From Deltaproteobacteria bacterium (GTDB lineage Bacteria; Desulfobacterota; Binatia; UBA9968): a stretch of DNA of 44,677 bases. The number at the start of each line of letters is the position of its first letter. The first letter of the stretch is position 1. The notes under the pieces are model-generated. The model worked only from the letters and a program-made list of their open reading frames with translations. It made no database searches and was not told the DNA's origin. The DNA lies in NCBI GenBank assembly GCA_009692615.1, contig SHYW01000034.1:1-44677 (forward strand), read 5' to 3'. The position numbers and the translations under genes were made by a program. This document shows, piece after piece, positions 3,159 through 44,515 of the stretch.

Positions 3159-3806
3159 TTATCCAGCTTCAGGACTGCCGCGTAGCGGCGCAAGCCGCCA
3201 GTTTCGCGACCGCGAGGTACGCGCCCGCTCGGCAACGACGATGGCGCTCAAGGTCTTGACCGCCTCGCCGACTTGTCGATTGACGACGTAATAATCATAC
3301 TTGATCAGCTCGCCGATTTCACCCCGGGCGTTGGCGAGGCGGCGCTGAATGATTTTCTTGTCATCGGTGCCGCGCGCCGACAGGCGCCGCTTTAACTCGG
3401 CCATGGATGGCGGCAAGACGAATACCGCCACGGCGTCGGGATAGCGCCGCTTGATCTCTCGTGCGCCTTGGACGTCGATGTCGAGTAAAATATCCCGCCC
3501 CGCCTTGACCGCTTGATCCAAAGGCTTTTTCGGCGTGCCGTAAAAATAGTCATGCACCTGCGCCGATTCCGCGAATTCGCCGCGCCTTTTAAGCCCGTCG
3601 AATTGACGCTCGCTAATGAAGCGATAATCCCGGCCGCGAATCTCACCGCGGCGCGGCGCCCGCGTGGTGCATGAAACCGACAGGCTGATTTCCGGATAGA
3701 TCTGACGCAGACCGTTATAAAGCGTAGTTTTGCCGGCGCCGGACGGCGCCGAGAGAATAAAAATAATCCCTTGCCGGTGGGCAAGCGGACGAGCAGGCGC
3801 TTTCAT
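3159..3806 (-). CDS. gmk: Guanylate kinase
   Basis: A 215-residue cytosolic kinase converting GMP (or dGMP) and ATP to GDP and ADP. The P-loop is SAPSGAGKTT near residues 19-28; the GMP-binding SVSCTTRAPRRGE and the GxDYxF stretch follow, then the lid and YDYYVVN near the end. Length is usual apart from a slightly basic C-terminal tail. The ATG at 3806 overlaps the yicC stop by four bases, so the two are likely co-translated. The yicC-gmk-spoT order is a widely conserved bacterial arrangement, which supports all three calls. Confidence 0.95.
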   Translation of the reverse strand: MKAPARPLAHRQGIIFILSAPSGAGKTTLYNGLRQIYPEISLSVSCTTRAPRRGEIRGRDYRFISERQFDGLKRRGEFAESAQVHDYFYGTPKKPLDQAVKAGRDILLDIDVQGAREIKRRYPDAVAVFVLPPSMAELKRRLSARGTDDKKIIQRRLANARGEIGELIKYDYYVVNRQVGEAVKTLSAIVVAERARTSRSRNWRLAPLRGSPEAG

Positions 3807-4645
3807 TCGACGTTCTGAGTTTGCTCGCGGACTTTTTCGACCCGCTCTTTGCCCTTGAGCACCAGTTGCGTCACCGGCATGTAAGCGACTTTCGAACTAA
3901 TGGTGTTGAGCTCGCGGTTCACTTCCTGAAGCATGAAGTCAATGCGCTTGCCGACCGGTTCGCGCTCGCGCACGACTTTAGCCAGCGCGACCACGTGGGT
4001 CTTCAATCGGACGATCTCTTCGTTGATATCCCCTTTGAACATCACGCCGGAATTTTCCGCTAGACTACGATCGTCATGCGCGTCGGCGTTTTTTTGCGGC
4101 CGAATCCCGTTCTCCGCCGCCCGCGCTTCGATCTGCACGGCGACTTTACGCAACTCGTCGATCTGCGATTCCATATCGGCGCGCAGATGGGCGCCCTCCC
4201 GCTCACGGGATTGTTCGAGTTTTTTTAGTGCGCCGCCAAGCGCCTTGAGCACCGCCAAACGTTCCTCGGCAACGTTGACCTCGACTTCGCGCAGCTGAAA
4301 TAATTCTGGAATCGTCGAAAGCAGCGACACCCCGATTTCGCCAGCGAGTTTGAACTTTTTCTTGAGCTGGCTCACTCCGGCGATGTACTGGCCGACCAGA
4401 GCTTCGTCCATTTCCAACTTGCGGCTCTGGCCCTTGGCGGCGTAACGATTGACGAACAGATCGATGCGGCCGCGGGAAATCTTTTCGCGCACCACCTTGC
4501 GGATTTCTTCTTCAACGGACAACAGTTCCCGCGGCGCGCGCACCTGCAAATCGAGATGTCGATGGTTGACGCTGCGAATCTGCACCGTCACCTTGGCGCC
4601 TTTGATGTTCTGCGAAGCCTCGCCATAACCGGTCATGCTTTTCAT
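3803..4645 (-). CDS. yicC: YicC/YloC family endoribonuclease
   Basis: A 280-residue member of the YicC family, recently described as endoribonucleases involved in RNA turnover. It begins with the invariant MKSMTGYG and carries the N-terminal SVNHRHLDLQ region and the C-terminal DUF1732 stretch (KRIDFMLQEVNRELNTISSK), both diagnostic. The middle is charged and probably coiled coil (about residues 140-190). It overlaps gmk downstream and rfaE1 upstream by four bases each. The family call is firm; the exact RNA substrate here is unknown. Confidence 0.92.
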   Translation of the reverse strand: MKSMTGYGEASQNIKGAKVTVQIRSVNHRHLDLQVRAPRELLSVEEEIRKVVREKISRGRIDLFVNRYAAKGQSRKLEMDEALVGQYIAGVSQLKKKFKLAGEIGVSLLSTIPELFQLREVEVNVAEERLAVLKALGGALKKLEQSREREGAHLRADMESQIDELRKVAVQIEARAAENGIRPQKNADAHDDRSLAENSGVMFKGDINEEIVRLKTHVVALAKVVREREPVGKRIDFMLQEVNRELNTISSKVAYMPVTQLVLKGKERVEKVREQTQNVE

Positions 4646-5631
4646 AGTCGTTCCTTGATGATACTCCGTTTAAGATTTTCCGCCGGGACCGCCACCGTAC
4701 CCACTTCATCGCCGACAAAGCCCGCCGCCAGATTGGCCAACACTGCCGCTTGTTCGTAGCTAGCGCCCGAGGCCAACGCCAGCGCGCACACCGCCACCAC
4801 CGTGTCCCCCGCTCCGGTGACTTCAAACACATCGCGCGGCGCGGTGGGAAAATGTTTGACCTTCACCCGCGGCCGAAACAAACTCATGCCATCGGCACCG
4901 CGGGTGATCAGCACCGCCTGGGCTTGCCACTTGCGCACCAGTTTGGCGCCGGCCGTTAGTAAAGAAGCTTGGTCGTCGATGGCGATTGCCGACGCTTCGC
5001 TGGCTTCGCTCTTGTTCGGCGTCACCAACGTCGCGAACCGATAGTGTTGGTAATTTTCTTTTTTCGGATCGATCACGCAAATTATTTTCTTCGCCTTCGC
5101 CCGCACCGCGATGGCATCGAGCAACTCGTTATGAATCACGCCCTTGCCATAATCGGAAAGCACCACGGCATCGAAATCGTCGAGCCGCGCGACGATCCGC
5201 TCGCGCAGCTTGCGCAGCGTCGCCGGCGCCACCGCCTGGCGGCTTTCGCGGTCGAGGCGGACGATTTGCTGCTGGTGCGGACTGGCGATGACCCGGGTCT
5301 TTTGAATCGTATGATAATTGGCATCGACGACCACGCCCGATGTGGACGCGTTGACATCGTGCAACGCGGCAACGATGCGCTTGCCCGCGTTGTCCCGGCC
5401 GACGATGCCGCATGCGGCAACCCGCCCGCCCAAAGAGCGCACGTTATGAATCACGTTGGCCGCGCCGCCGAGCCGAGAATCTTCCGAAGCCACGCGCAGC
5501 ACCGGTACCGGCGCTTCCGGCGAGATGCGCTCGACTTCACCGCGGATGAAACGATCGAGCATGAGGTCGCCGATCACCAGTAAATGGGTGCGGGAAAACT
5601 TTTCGACGATAGATAAAAGAGATTCACTCAT
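4642..5631 (-). CDS. rfaE1: D-glycero-beta-D-manno-heptose-7-phosphate kinase (RfaE1/HldE N-terminal type)
   Basis: A 329-residue PfkB/ribokinase-fold kinase that phosphorylates heptose-7-phosphate at C1 for ADP-heptose synthesis. Visible features are LVIGDLMLDRFIRGEVERISPEAPVPV at the N-terminus (a hallmark of RfaE1, in two short blocks), LGGAANV, LSDYGKGV, DPKK and the catalytic VTGAGDTVVA near residue 268. Unlike enterobacterial HldE there is no fused adenylyltransferase; that domain is encoded at 219-698. It shares ATGA overlaps with yicC downstream and with the GT4 gene upstream, placing it at the end of the LPS core cluster. Confidence 0.93.
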   Translation of the reverse strand: MSESLLSIVEKFSRTHLLVIGDLMLDRFIRGEVERISPEAPVPVLRVASEDSRLGGAANVIHNVRSLGGRVAACGIVGRDNAGKRIVAALHDVNASTSGVVVDANYHTIQKTRVIASPHQQQIVRLDRESRQAVAPATLRKLRERIVARLDDFDAVVLSDYGKGVIHNELLDAIAVRAKAKKIICVIDPKKENYQHYRFATLVTPNKSEASEASAIAIDDQASLLTAGAKLVRKWQAQAVLITRGADGMSLFRPRVKVKHFPTAPRDVFEVTGAGDTVVAVCALALASGASYEQAAVLANLAAGFVGDEVGTVAVPAENLKRSIIKERL

Positions 5632-38779: not shown

Positions 38780-39214
38780 TTACTGAGACTTTTCCTGCCC
38801 GCGTAGGACTCGTTGGCGGGCGGCCAGCGGATCGCAGCCCGAACCACTTTCCGGGGTGATTTGATTTCTAAGCACGTCGGTGTGATTGAGCAACGCCGAC
38901 TTGATCTCGTCGGCGACACCGAAGCGCTCCAACGTCTCTTTAAAAATTTGTTTGCGCCGGGCGAAGTGGCCGCCCATGATCGGATGGCTCGCATGGGCCT
39001 CGCCCAGCGGCCTGCCGGTGTATTTAACCTCGGCGCCGAGAAATTCCGCCGCAAGCTGATATTCTAATTCTTTGATGCGGGCGGGATCGGCGTGGCGAAA
39101 AAAGAACCCGATCATGCGGTCGGCGAAGACCTGATCGATAAATGCGCCGATGATTTCCCTGAGCTTGGCTTCGCCGCCCAGGCGCGCGAAAAGTGTCGGC
39201 TCGACCGTCGACAT
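38780..39214 (-). CDS. Truncated hemoglobin, group I-like
   Basis: About 144 residues with a two-over-two globin fold. It opens with LFARLGGEAKLREIIGAF and contains KYTGRPLGEAHASHPIMGGHF, matching the YxGRxMxxAH...HF pattern of group I; His83 is the expected proximal haem ligand. By alignment to mycobacterial HbN, the distal B10 tyrosine position appears to be Ile26, which would alter oxygen or NO chemistry; this is inference. ATG at 39214 is preferred to an upstream extension overlapping the DUF59 gene. It is the last gene of the suf operon, 14 bases downstream, so expression is probably tied to Fe-S status. Confidence 0.85.
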   Translation of the reverse strand: MSTVEPTLFARLGGEAKLREIIGAFIDQVFADRMIGFFFRHADPARIKELEYQLAAEFLGAEVKYTGRPLGEAHASHPIMGGHFARRKQIFKETLERFGVADEIKSALLNHTDVLRNQITPESGSGCDPLAARQRVLRGQEKSQ

Positions 39215-39228
39215 AACCATCACTCGAT

Positions 39229-39549
39229 TTAGAGCATGCCCAACTGCAAGCGCGCCGCTTCGGACATCTTGGTCTGATCCCAAGGCGGTTCCCAGACCAG
39301 GTCGATTTGCACATCGGTGACACCGTCAACGGCGCGAATCTTTTGTTCGACTTCCGCCGGAATCGACTGCGCCGCTGGACAGCTCGGCGAAGTCAGCGTG
39401 AGCTGAATCGTCACCGCACCCGCTTCGTTGACCTTGACCTCATAGATCAAACCCATCTCGTAAATGTTCACCGGAATCTCCGGATCGAACACCGTGCGTA
39501 GCGCCTCGATCGCTTGGGCTTCGATGATCGTTTGGTTGATGCTGTCCAT
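39229..39549 (-). CDS. MIP18/DUF59 family Fe-S assembly protein
   Basis: A 106-residue protein of the DUF59 (MIP18, PaaD, SufT-like) family, which helps Fe-S cluster maturation or delivery. Seen are the VFDPEIPVNIYEMGLIY block and LTSPSCPAAQSIP with the conserved cysteine, then VDLVWEPPW-like ending (IDLVWEPPWDQTKMS). It is four bases after the longer SufT gene and repeats the same domain, so the pair are tandem paralogs of unequal length. Confidence 0.9.
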   Translation of the reverse strand: MDSINQTIIEAQAIEALRTVFDPEIPVNIYEMGLIYEVKVNEAGAVTIQLTLTSPSCPAAQSIPAEVEQKIRAVDGVTDVQIDLVWEPPWDQTKMSEAARLQLGML

Positions 39550-43199: not shown

Positions 43200-43958
43200 T
43201 TAATGAGCGGCGACGCCGTCGCCTTTGAGCCAATCGTAGCCCCTGCTCTCAAGCTCGAGGGCCAGCTCTTTGGTTCCCGATTTGACGATGCGCCCATCGG
43301 AAAGCACGTGGACGAAGTCTGGCACAATATAGTCCAACAAGCGCTGATAGTGGGTGATGACGATCATGGCGCGGTCCTTACCGCGCAGCGCATTGACGCC
43401 GTTGGCAACCACGCGCAATGCGTCGATGTCCAGTCCCGAATCGGTCTCGTCTAACACTGCCAAGATTGGATCGAGCACCGCCATCTGCAAAATTTCGTTA
43501 CGCTTCTTCTCGCCGCCGGAAAAGCCCTCATTGAGCGGCCGGTTGGTTAGCGTCTGATCCATTTCTACTAGTTTCATTTTGTCTTTAATCAGCACAAGAA
43601 ACTCCATGGCGTCGAGTTCTTCCAGACCGCGATGTTTGCGCACGGCGTTGAGCGCCGCTTTGAGAAAATAGGTCGTGCTGACGCCGGGAATTTCCACCGG
43701 ATATTGAAACGCCAAAAACACGCCCTCGCGGGCGCGCACTTCCGGCGCCATAGCGAGTAGATCTTTACCCAAATAGGTTACCGAACCGCCGGTGACTTCA
43801 TAGTTCTCGCGGCCCGACAGCACATGCGCCAGCGTGCTCTTACCCGAACCGTTGGGACCCATGATCGCGTGCACCTCGCCGGCGCCGATCTTGAGATCGA
43901 TGCCGCGAAGAATTTCTTTAGTGCCAACTTTCGCGCGCAGGCCGCTAATTTCCAACAT
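43200..43958 (-). CDS. sufC: Fe-S cluster assembly ATPase SufC
   Basis: A 252-residue ABC-type ATPase of the SufBCD scaffold. Walker A is GPNGSGKST, the signature FSGGEKKRNEI, and Walker B LAVLDETDSGLDIDAL, with HYQRLL after it; all typical of SufC. A TTG at 43964 also opens the frame, but ATG 43958 follows AAAGGA at seven bases. The gene starts 17 bases after the Rrf2-type regulator, where sufB would usually lie. Confidence 0.95.
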   Translation of the reverse strand: MLEISGLRAKVGTKEILRGIDLKIGAGEVHAIMGPNGSGKSTLAHVLSGRENYEVTGGSVTYLGKDLLAMAPEVRAREGVFLAFQYPVEIPGVSTTYFLKAALNAVRKHRGLEELDAMEFLVLIKDKMKLVEMDQTLTNRPLNEGFSGGEKKRNEILQMAVLDPILAVLDETDSGLDIDALRVVANGVNALRGKDRAMIVITHYQRLLDYIVPDFVHVLSDGRIVKSGTKELALELESRGYDWLKGDGVAAH

Positions 43959-43975
43959 CGACAAATCCTTTCAAA

Positions 43976-44428
43976 CTATCCCACACGCTGCATCGGCAGC
44001 TTTACTAAACGTTCCTTGAGTCCCTGGCGATCGGCGATGTTGGCGATGGTCACGCCGGCGAGAAAATTTCCCAGCACGACTTGCGCCTCTTCCCAAATCG
44101 ACTTCTGCGAACAAACCGCACAGAAAGAACAGTAATCCGCGCCGGTATCCAAACACTCCATCAAGACCAAAGGCCGCTCGACGGTTTCGTAAACATCTTT
44201 GATCGAGATTGCGCTTGCCGGCTTGGCCAAGGTAAATCCGCCCTTGGAACCGATGTGCGATTGCACCAAGCCGCCGCCGACCAGATCTTTCATGATCTTG
44301 GAGAGATAAAATGAAGGAATGTCTTGGCTCCACTCGATATCGGTTCGGCTGACCACCCGCCCGGGCGCCTGGCCGGCAAGATAAGACAAGGCCCGCACCG
44401 CGTAATCGACGCGCCGGCCGACATTCAT
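43976..44428 (-). CDS. Rrf2/IscR-type transcriptional regulator of the suf operon
   Basis: About 150 residues. The winged helix is VDYAVRALSYLAGQ ... SFYLSKIMKDLVGGGLV and GSKGGFTLAKP, the Rrf2 pattern. C92, C100, C103 and C106 (ECLDTGADYCSFCAVC) are likely Fe-S ligands, though the spacing (7-2-2) differs from IscR (5-5, then His). Two starts are possible: ATG 44476 (166 residues) or ATG 44428. The promoter at 44486-44515 would start transcription near 44479, making 44476 almost leaderless, so 44428, which gives the usual family N-terminus, is chosen. It probably senses cluster demand and controls the downstream suf genes and itself. Confidence 0.9.
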   Translation of the reverse strand: MNVGRRVDYAVRALSYLAGQAPGRVVSRTDIEWSQDIPSFYLSKIMKDLVGGGLVQSHIGSKGGFTLAKPASAISIKDVYETVERPLVLMECLDTGADYCSFCAVCSQKSIWEEAQVVLGNFLAGVTIANIADRQGLKERLVKLPMQRVG

Positions 44429-44485
44429 CAACGAGCTGCGCTCGCTTTTTGCCTTTCCCCGTTTGATATTCGCCATAGCCAAAGA

Positions 44486-44515
44486 AATATAGACTCGTTA
44501 GGTCTATAATGTCAA
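44486..44515 (-). promoter_or_regulatory. Sigma-70-like promoter of the Rrf2-suf operon
   Basis: Minus strand: a perfect TTGACA (44510-44515), an 18-base spacer and TATATT (44486-44491). This is the strongest promoter match noticed in the window and directly precedes the regulator. Expected transcription start is near 44479. Confidence 0.7.
44488..44508. promoter_or_regulatory. Palindromic operator candidate for the Rrf2-type regulator
   Basis: A perfect 7-bp inverted repeat TATAGAC-N7-GTCTATA fills most of the promoter spacer and part of the -10 box. It resembles the ATA...GACT...AGTC...TAT design of IscR type 1 sites in outline. Binding there would block the promoter, giving autorepression; this is inferred from position and symmetry. 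Confidence 0.62.

What the first reader, a model, noticed from the sequence alone, without database searches (positions are those of the whole stretch)
43959..43975. sufB is absent from an otherwise complete suf operon
The usual order is regulator-sufB-sufC-sufD-sufS-sufU-sufT. Here only 17 bases separate the regulator from sufC and no sufB remnant is visible. SufB is the main scaffold, so either it is elsewhere, or SufCD work with another scaffold, or an assembly collapse removed it.
Basis: partly seen in the sequence, partly recalled or inferred. Interest (0 to 1): 0.55.

Follow-up and report, generated by a model that had tools for sequence, protein, structure and literature searches.

The report
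Key scaffold gene moved between operons
The gene for the main iron-sulfur scaffold protein SufB is not missing: throughout this bacterial family it has left its usual operon and sits in a second iron-sulfur operon elsewhere in the genome, so one protein complex seems to be encoded at two places with different regulators.

Summary
Observation confirmed: at 43959-43975 only 17 bp separate an Rrf2 regulator from sufC, and the operon has no sufB. But the genome has one full SufB (642 bits) on another contig, in uvrA-iscS-iscA-sufB-iscS2-rrf2. Assembly collapse is excluded: of 25 family genomes, 21 have sufB (two of them in pieces or cut) in that isc-type operon, 22 of 22 with a recovered sufC have rrf2 directly before it, and 0 have sufB beside sufC. 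Of 33 class genomes outside the family found with SufB, 32 have it beside sufC; one is cut by a contig end. Sister families show iscA and iscS2 17-128 bp apart without sufB. So sufB was relocated, most simply once. Active-site residues are kept, so an ordinary SufBC2D assembled in trans is likeliest. The two operons carry different Rrf2 regulators and operator-like dyads; one genome lacking the isc regulator has a suf-type operator at its isc promoter. Regulation and in-trans assembly are inferred. New variant of a known system.

The parts
43976..44482 (-). rrf2suf: Rrf2-family regulator with a conserved C-x7-C-x2-C-x2-C cluster; called start is TTG, true start uncertain
   Evidence: the four Cys are conserved in 20 of 20 family rows of at least 120 residues
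44486..44515 (-). promoter-like element: TTGACA (44515-44510), 18-bp spacer, TATATT (44491-44486)
   Evidence: read directly; in the 20 family promoters TTGAC stands at this place in 17 and TATATT in 18
44490..44506 (-). operator-like dyad TAGACCTAACGAGTCTA lying within the promoter
43959..43975 (-). 17-bp junction between rrf2 and sufC, where sufB stands in related families
   Evidence: rrf2-sufC gap (matched ends, stop codon included) 14-181 bp in 22 family genomes and 1531-1589 bp, holding sufB, in 6 f3 loci
43200..43964 (-). sufC ATPase (ATG start 43958)
   Evidence: TIGR01978, 351 bits
41862..43175 (-). sufD; keeps the counterparts of E. coli SufD C358 and H360 (C374, H376)
   Evidence: TIGR01981, 265 bits
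40591..41868 (-). sufS cysteine desulfurase
   Evidence: TIGR01979, 619 bits
40139..40591 (-). sufU, sulfur transfer protein; the only NifU_N-type protein found in the genome
   Evidence: TIGR01994, 156 bits
39554..40105 (-). long SufT
   Evidence: TIGR03406, 197.2 bits, just under the cut-off of 202.6
39229..39549 (-). short SufT (SUF_assoc)
   Evidence: TIGR02945, 148.6 bits

Best explanation
In an ancestor of this bacterial family sufB came to leave its place between the rrf2 regulator and sufC and to stand alone in a separate isc-type operon, between iscA and a second cysteine desulfurase gene (shown by comparative layout; most simply one event). That operon lacks iscU. SufB made there meets SufC and SufD made from the operon in this window and forms an ordinary SufBC2D scaffold, fed with sulfur by SufS and SufU (inferred from intact residues and a unique gene set). 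Because the two operons carry different Rrf2 regulators and different operator-like dyads, the amount of SufB is probably set separately from that of SufC, SufD and SufS (inferred). The window is therefore not a damaged operon but half of a split one.
For: The own genome has exactly one SufB: C52:18334-19722, 642 bits, open frame, no stops, in uvrA-iscS1-iscA-sufB-iscS2-rrf2, 14 bp after iscA and 28 bp before iscS2. In the family 21 of 25 genomes have sufB in the isc operon, 22 of 22 with sufC have rrf2 directly before it, and 0 of 25 have sufB beside sufC. Outside it, of 33 class genomes found with SufB, 32 have it beside sufC and one is cut by its contig end. All 8 f2/f3 isc loci fetched that hold both genes have iscA and iscS2 17-128 bp apart without sufB. 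SufC+SufD+SufS of the family form one group (SH-aLRT 96), and one clade of the 20 isc-borne SufBs is not rejected (AU p 0.64). SufB C242, C394, E423 and SufD H376, by my count the counterparts of E. coli C254, C405, E434 and H360 (PMC5571166, passages), are kept: C394 and E423 in 21 of 21 SufB rows and H376 in 22 of 22 SufD rows; C242 was read in the own protein only. In the 8 family genomes tested for NifU_N the single match lies on the suf contig.
Against: No expression, complex or binding data exist. In all 18 family genomes with both genes recovered they lie on different contigs, so the distance is unknown. The SufB tree is weakly resolved: the free wide tree does not recover the family's SufBs as one group, because three second copies group with f6 and G013 and f2 stand apart, and f3 SufB is separate from f2 SufB although their SufC+SufD+SufS group together. 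Three family genomes with sufB lack a recovered sufC (G005, G017, G021), and G012, rated 99% complete but 9% contaminated, lacks a full SufB and iscS2. In-trans assembly is the default inference from SUF biochemistry.
Confidence: 0.83

Rival explanations
1. Assembly or binning artefact: sufB was collapsed out of the operon, and the second locus is a stray contig.
For: The window is a whole contig that ends 195 bp upstream of the regulator; the assembly has 186 contigs.
Against: The same rrf2-sufC junction occurs in 22 of 22 family genomes with sufC, and the isc-sufB operon in 21 of 25; iscS1, iscA and iscS2 around sufB keep their order in the sister families, which lack sufB there.
Confidence: 0.02
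2. Same end state by another route: a sufB copy, the genome's own or one from a near relative, was first inserted into the isc operon and the original was lost later. This differs from the best explanation only in how the gene got there.
For: Three family genomes (G003, G014, G015) carry a second sufB; in G014 it lies between a ferredoxin and a sufT gene; the three group with SufB of f6 (SH-aLRT 93). sufB copies can thus occur alone.
Against: The isc-borne SufBs sit nearest to those of f2, f6 and two f76 genomes, close to the neighbourhood of the family's SufC+SufD+SufS, so no distant donor is indicated. The data do not separate a direct move from a copy followed by loss.
Confidence: 0.3
3. 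SufB in this family works chiefly with IscS1 and IscA as a separate scaffold and needs SufC and SufD less than usual.
For: The isc operon has two cysteine desulfurases and an A-type carrier but no IscU; sufB stands directly after iscA.
Against: sufC was recovered in 22 of 25 family genomes; SufD keeps the histidine that is essential in E. coli in 22 of 22 rows; the C-terminal part of SufB, where SufC binds in E. coli, aligns closely; the SufB branch to the family is short, 0.02 changes per site.
Confidence: 0.08

Closest known systems
SUF operon of Myxococcus xanthus (risR-sufB-sufC-sufD-sufS-sufU-sufT; PMC9973013, passages read)
   Same: Rrf2 regulator first, then the same suf genes in the same order as here
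   Different: sufB is in place there; the isc operon there has iscU, hscBA and fdx
Alphaproteobacterial isc-suf operon (Rhodobacter sphaeroides; PMC6956336, passages read)
   Same: sufB in one operon with iscS under an IscR (Rrf2-type) regulator; two cysteine desulfurases
   Different: there sufC, sufD and sufS are in the same operon; here they are at another locus with another regulator
Apicoplast SUF of Plasmodium falciparum (PMC3784473, passages read)
   Same: sufB is encoded apart from partner genes: sufB in the organelle genome, sufS in the nucleus
   Different: there the split is between organelle and nucleus; here it is between two operons of one bacterial genome
E. coli SufBC2D (PDB 5awf)
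   Same: SufB matches over 472 residues (722 bits) and SufD over 386 (185 bits), with the active-site residues kept
   Different: E. coli has one sufABCDSE operon (PMC6006206, abstract in the listing)

Membership tests
SUF system (SufBC2D scaffold) | SufB, SufC and SufD all encoded | tested here: met
   SufB 642 bits on C52; SufC 351 and SufD 265 bits in the window, all over their cut-offs
SUF system (SufBC2D scaffold) | cluster-site residues (E. coli SufB C405, E434; SufD H360) and sulfur-entry C254 | tested here: met
   own C394, E423, H376 and C242; C394 and E423 in 21 of 21 SufB rows and H376 in 22 of 22 SufD rows; C242 read in the own protein only
SUF system (SufBC2D scaffold) | cysteine desulfurase SufS with SufE or SufU | tested here: met
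   SufS 619 bits, SufU 156 bits
SUF system (SufBC2D scaffold) | SufB, SufC and SufD form one complex (1:2:1, PMC8593673, passages) | not testable with these tools
   needs purification; in-trans assembly is inferred
Classical rrf2-sufBCDSUT operon | sufB next to sufC in one operon | tested here: not met
   0 of 25 family genomes, against 32 of 33 other class genomes found with SufB
ISC system | scaffold IscU | tested here: not met
   the only NifU_N match in the own genome is SufU
ISC system | IscS and A-type carrier | tested here: met
   IscS1 628 bits (NF010611, over cut-off; the IscS model TIGR02006 gives 610, under its cut-off of 643) and an A-type protein (TIGR00049, over cut-off) around sufB
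ISC system | HscB co-chaperone | tested here: inconclusive
   own genome: only a 22-bit J-domain match in a 391-residue frame, cut-off 46.75; but the cut-off is strict, reached in 1 of 14 control genomes and missed (44 bits) even beside iscU-iscA in G036 and G037
Alphaproteobacterial isc-suf operon | iscS, sufB, sufC and sufD in one operon | tested here: not met
   sufC and sufD are on another contig

The most novel reading that the evidence does not exclude
The split is adaptive: SufB dosage has been uncoupled from SufC, SufD and SufS so that the scaffold follows the demand sensed by the isc-type Rrf2, letting one SufB serve two sulfur donors (SufS-SufU and IscS1) under different conditions, that is, a merged ISC-SUF machine in which SufB stands in for the lost IscU. 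The genome that lacks the isc regulator and has a suf-type operator at the isc promoter would be a natural reversal that puts the complex back under one regulator.
Probability: 0.2. Interest if true: 0.7.

Novelty: new variant of a known kind. Interest (0 to 1): 0.42.

Why it matters
Subunits of one bacterial complex are commonly encoded together (recalled), and sufB stands beside sufC in all 32 other class genomes with SufB where the neighbour could be seen. Here the central subunit is in another operon in 21 genomes of 12 genera. That gives a natural experiment on whether operon co-regulation is needed for complex assembly, and on how Rrf2 regulators share out iron-sulfur assembly in a lineage without a detected IscU. 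It also warns against calling a SUF system incomplete from one locus or one contig.

Tried and rejected
Assembly collapse: rejected. Loss of SufB with IscU or NifU as replacement scaffold: rejected, none found besides SufU. sufB at the far end of this operon, as in sufCDSUB: rejected, the SufB profile finds only SufD on this contig. Foreign origin of the isc-borne SufB from a distant donor: not indicated, but only relatives of one class and one outgroup were in the tree, and a near donor cannot be excluded. A long row (G030b, a second divergent SufB) distorted the first SufB tree and was left out of the later ones. A phylum-wide sample gave little: 4 of 148 genomes have a SufB over the cut-off and 4 of 148 a SufC; the three besides the own genome have sufB beside sufC. 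The isc dyad is less uniform than the suf one: my loose pattern, written after seeing the sequences, missed 2 of 19 family promoters (G001, G005), and by my count only 11 of 19 end in (A/G)GTCTG. No matrix of the isc dyad was made. Literature: five searches listed nothing on a sufB moved into an isc operon; none of the ten papers listed held the word Binatota. The library lacks most subscription journals, and only passages of five papers were read. Not tried: structure prediction, which would not decide between assembly in trans and independence.

Rows dropped before counts: G030b from the later trees; SufB rows under 340 residues from the trees; SufB rows under 440 and SufD rows under 380 residues from the residue counts, in which second SufB copies are included; G019 from the suf operator matrix. 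In one search the shuffles keep single-base content only, and the G019 comparison was made after I had seen the site by eye.

Full report
1. The observation. On the minus strand of the window an Rrf2 regulator (44482-43976) is followed after 17 bp (43975-43959, counting from sufC's ATG at 43958) by sufC, sufD, sufS, sufU, a long sufT and a short sufT. The SufB profile finds no sufB in this contig, only the related SufD. The window is the entire contig C34 and ends 195 bp upstream of the called regulator start.

2. Where SufB is. The genome (5.05 Mb, 186 contigs, 98.7% complete) has one SufB, C52:18334-19722, 642 bits against a cut-off of 346, with an open frame. It lies in the run surA-pdxA-pmm-uvrA-iscS1-iscA-sufB-iscS2-rrf2-orf178-lpxL, 14 bp after iscA and 28 bp before iscS2. 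The flanking genes are an IscS (NF010611, 628 bits), an A-type carrier (TIGR00049), a NifS-type desulfurase (TIGR03402, 577 bits) and a second Rrf2 regulator. The names surA, pdxA, pmm and lpxL are my reading of the translations and serve as labels; of the upstream genes Pfam was run on uvrA and pmm only. orf178 has no Pfam or NCBIfam match.

3. Relatives. I searched the 35 genomes of the order that the tool returned (120 asked for) and took neighbourhoods. In family f1 (25 genomes) sufB stands in the isc operon in 21. Among these, G010 has only the start of sufB before its contig ends, G015 reads sufB in two frames, and in G003 iscA was not recovered. The four others are G012, G022, G039 and G040, where no full sufB was recovered; in G022 the contig begins inside iscS2. 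rrf2 stands directly before sufC in 22 (in G003 and G039 rrf2 is partial or broken); the three others (G005, G017, G021) have no recovered sufC. sufB stands beside sufC in none. The gap from rrf2 to sufC, measured between matched ends, is 14-181 bp in these 22 genomes; in 6 f3 loci it is 1531-1589 bp and holds sufB. In all 18 f1 genomes with both genes they lie on different contigs. In the single-contig f3 genome G026 the suf and isc loci are about 1.24 Mb apart.

4. Wider comparison. Of 118 class genomes drawn, 43 have SufB at E 1e-60: 14 are f1, 6 are f3 and 23 belong to other families. Adding f2 and three further f3 genomes from the order gives 33 genomes outside f1; 32 have sufB directly before sufC and G033 is cut at its contig end. 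One genome of another class, G126, also has them adjacent. The classical order is therefore most simply ancestral for the class, and the f1 layout derived.

5. The empty target site. In f2 (G023) and in seven f3 genomes the run uvrA-iscS1-iscA-iscS2 is present with 17-128 bp between iscA and iscS2 and no sufB. In the 19 f1 loci where it could be measured the same space is 1442-1638 bp and holds sufB. f1 thus differs from its sisters by one gene missing at one site and present at another. For f2 the contig ends just beyond sufB, so the regulator before sufB is not visible there.

6. Trees. With the wide sample, SufC+SufD+SufS place f1 as one group (SH-aLRT 96), in a larger group with f2+f3, one f6 and two f76 genomes. 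The SufB tree is shallow: in the order-level tree f1 is one group (84/87), while in the wide quick tree three extra SufB copies of f1 genomes join the f6 SufBs, G013 and f2 stand unresolved beside them, and f3 falls outside that cluster. Holding the 20 isc-borne SufBs together gives a tree 5.4 log units better than the free search had found (AU p 0.64), so one relocation is compatible with the data; it is not proved. A copy into the isc operon followed by loss of the original cannot be told from a direct move.

7. Function. SufB aligns with E. coli SufB of PDB 5awf over nearly its whole length (722 bits) and SufD with E. coli SufD (185 bits). The E. coli residues SufB C254, C405 and E434 and SufD H360, reported as essential or functional (PMC5571166, passages), correspond by my count along the printed alignments to C242, C394, E423 and H376 here. 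C394, H422 and E423 are conserved in 21 of 21 SufB rows, and C374 and H376 in 22 of 22 SufD rows; C242 was checked in the own protein only. The 21 SufB rows include second copies. No IscU was found: the single NifU_N match of the own genome is SufU, and the 7 other family genomes tested also have one match, on the suf contig. HscB was inconclusive. The likeliest mechanism is therefore an ordinary SufBC2D made from two loci.

8. Regulation (inferred). Upstream of rrf2suf lie TTGACA, an 18-bp spacer and TATATT in the window, with a dyad of the form AGACCTAA..GTCTA inside; across 20 family promoters my pattern, written after seeing them, found such a dyad in 20, with TTGAC at that place in 17 and TATATT in 18. 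Upstream of iscS1 many family genomes have a related dyad of the form CAGACT....AGTCTG: a loose pattern found 17 of 19, and 11 of 19 end in (A/G)GTCTG. The two regulators share 55 of 142 aligned residues, and both keep a cysteine cluster, C-x7-C-x2-C-x2-C in rrf2suf (20 of 20 rows) and C-x6-C-x5-C in rrf2isc (19 of 19 rows), as expected of iron-sulfur sensing Rrf2 proteins (recalled).

G019 is informative: it has no close rrf2isc (its two matches are its rrf2suf at 42% and a distant one at 31% identity), and its iscS1 promoter carries AAGACCTACAAGGTCTA, which scores 22.2 with the suf operator matrix built without G019. Of the 32 iscS1 promoters scored the next are G037, outside the family, with 13.5, and G021 with 12.4. 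Against this: G037, G021, G018 and G038 likewise had 0 of 200 shuffles as high, so the shuffles alone do not single out G019, and G019's own suf promoter scored only 17.1. Six f3 genomes tested have no close rrf2isc, the seven f3 isc loci lack it, their promoters score below zero with the suf matrix, and I saw no isc-type dyad in them by eye. This suggests that sufB moved from one Rrf2 regulon to another and, in G019, back under the first. It is one case, noticed by eye first.

9. Taxon. The titles of such family records say 'Deltaproteobacteria bacterium', 'Candidatus Binatia bacterium' (once), 'Syntrophobacter sp.' (once) or 'Proteobacteria bacterium' (once), so a Binatia-like lineage (taxonomy) is possible but the labels conflict.

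10. Known or new. Unlinked partner genes of SUF are known from apicoplasts and a mixed isc-suf operon from Alphaproteobacteria, and the unsplit form of this operon has been studied in Myxococcus. I found no report of sufB alone moved into an isc-type operon, in a library that lacks most subscription journals. I file it as a new variant of a known kind.

Mended were the spacing around sufB (14 and 28 bp), the promoter counts, the G019 controls, the HscB verdict (now inconclusive) and the partial loci behind the 21 and 22.

Noticed in passing
L076 (G014) 3362-4819, also L078 (G015) and L066 (G003): Second sufB copies in three family genomes (that of G003 in two frames); in G014 the copy sits after a ferredoxin and before a long sufT, near Hsp20-, FKBP- and CBS-like genes (my reading), in what looks like a stress island. 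They group with SufB of family f6.
   Followed up: partly
L003 11461-11997 (orf178): A protein without a Pfam or NCBIfam match that follows rrf2isc; relatives also occur at other places, some in the same assemblies.
   Followed up: partly
window 44474-44482: The called TTG start of rrf2suf lies only a few bases after the -10 element, so the real start is probably an ATG further in.
   Followed up: no
window 38780-39283: A truncated-haemoglobin-like protein (Bac_globin, 29.5 bits) overlaps the end of the short sufT; a match to it lies beside the suf operon in 10 of the 19 other family suf loci, some of which are cut by contig ends.
   Followed up: no
L105 (G012 C28) and L115 (G030 C134): Divergent extra SufC-SufB-like pairs: a weak pair in G012 and a sufC-sufB-sufD-sufS set in G030, whose sufB and sufC occur with the same scores on a second contig.
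   Followed up: no
G036, G037 and others of the class: 75 of 118 class genomes drawn have no SufB at E 1e-60 (some are incomplete); G036 and G037 have iscS, an IscU-type NifU_N protein and iscA instead, so the class mixes ISC and SUF lineages.
   Followed up: partly
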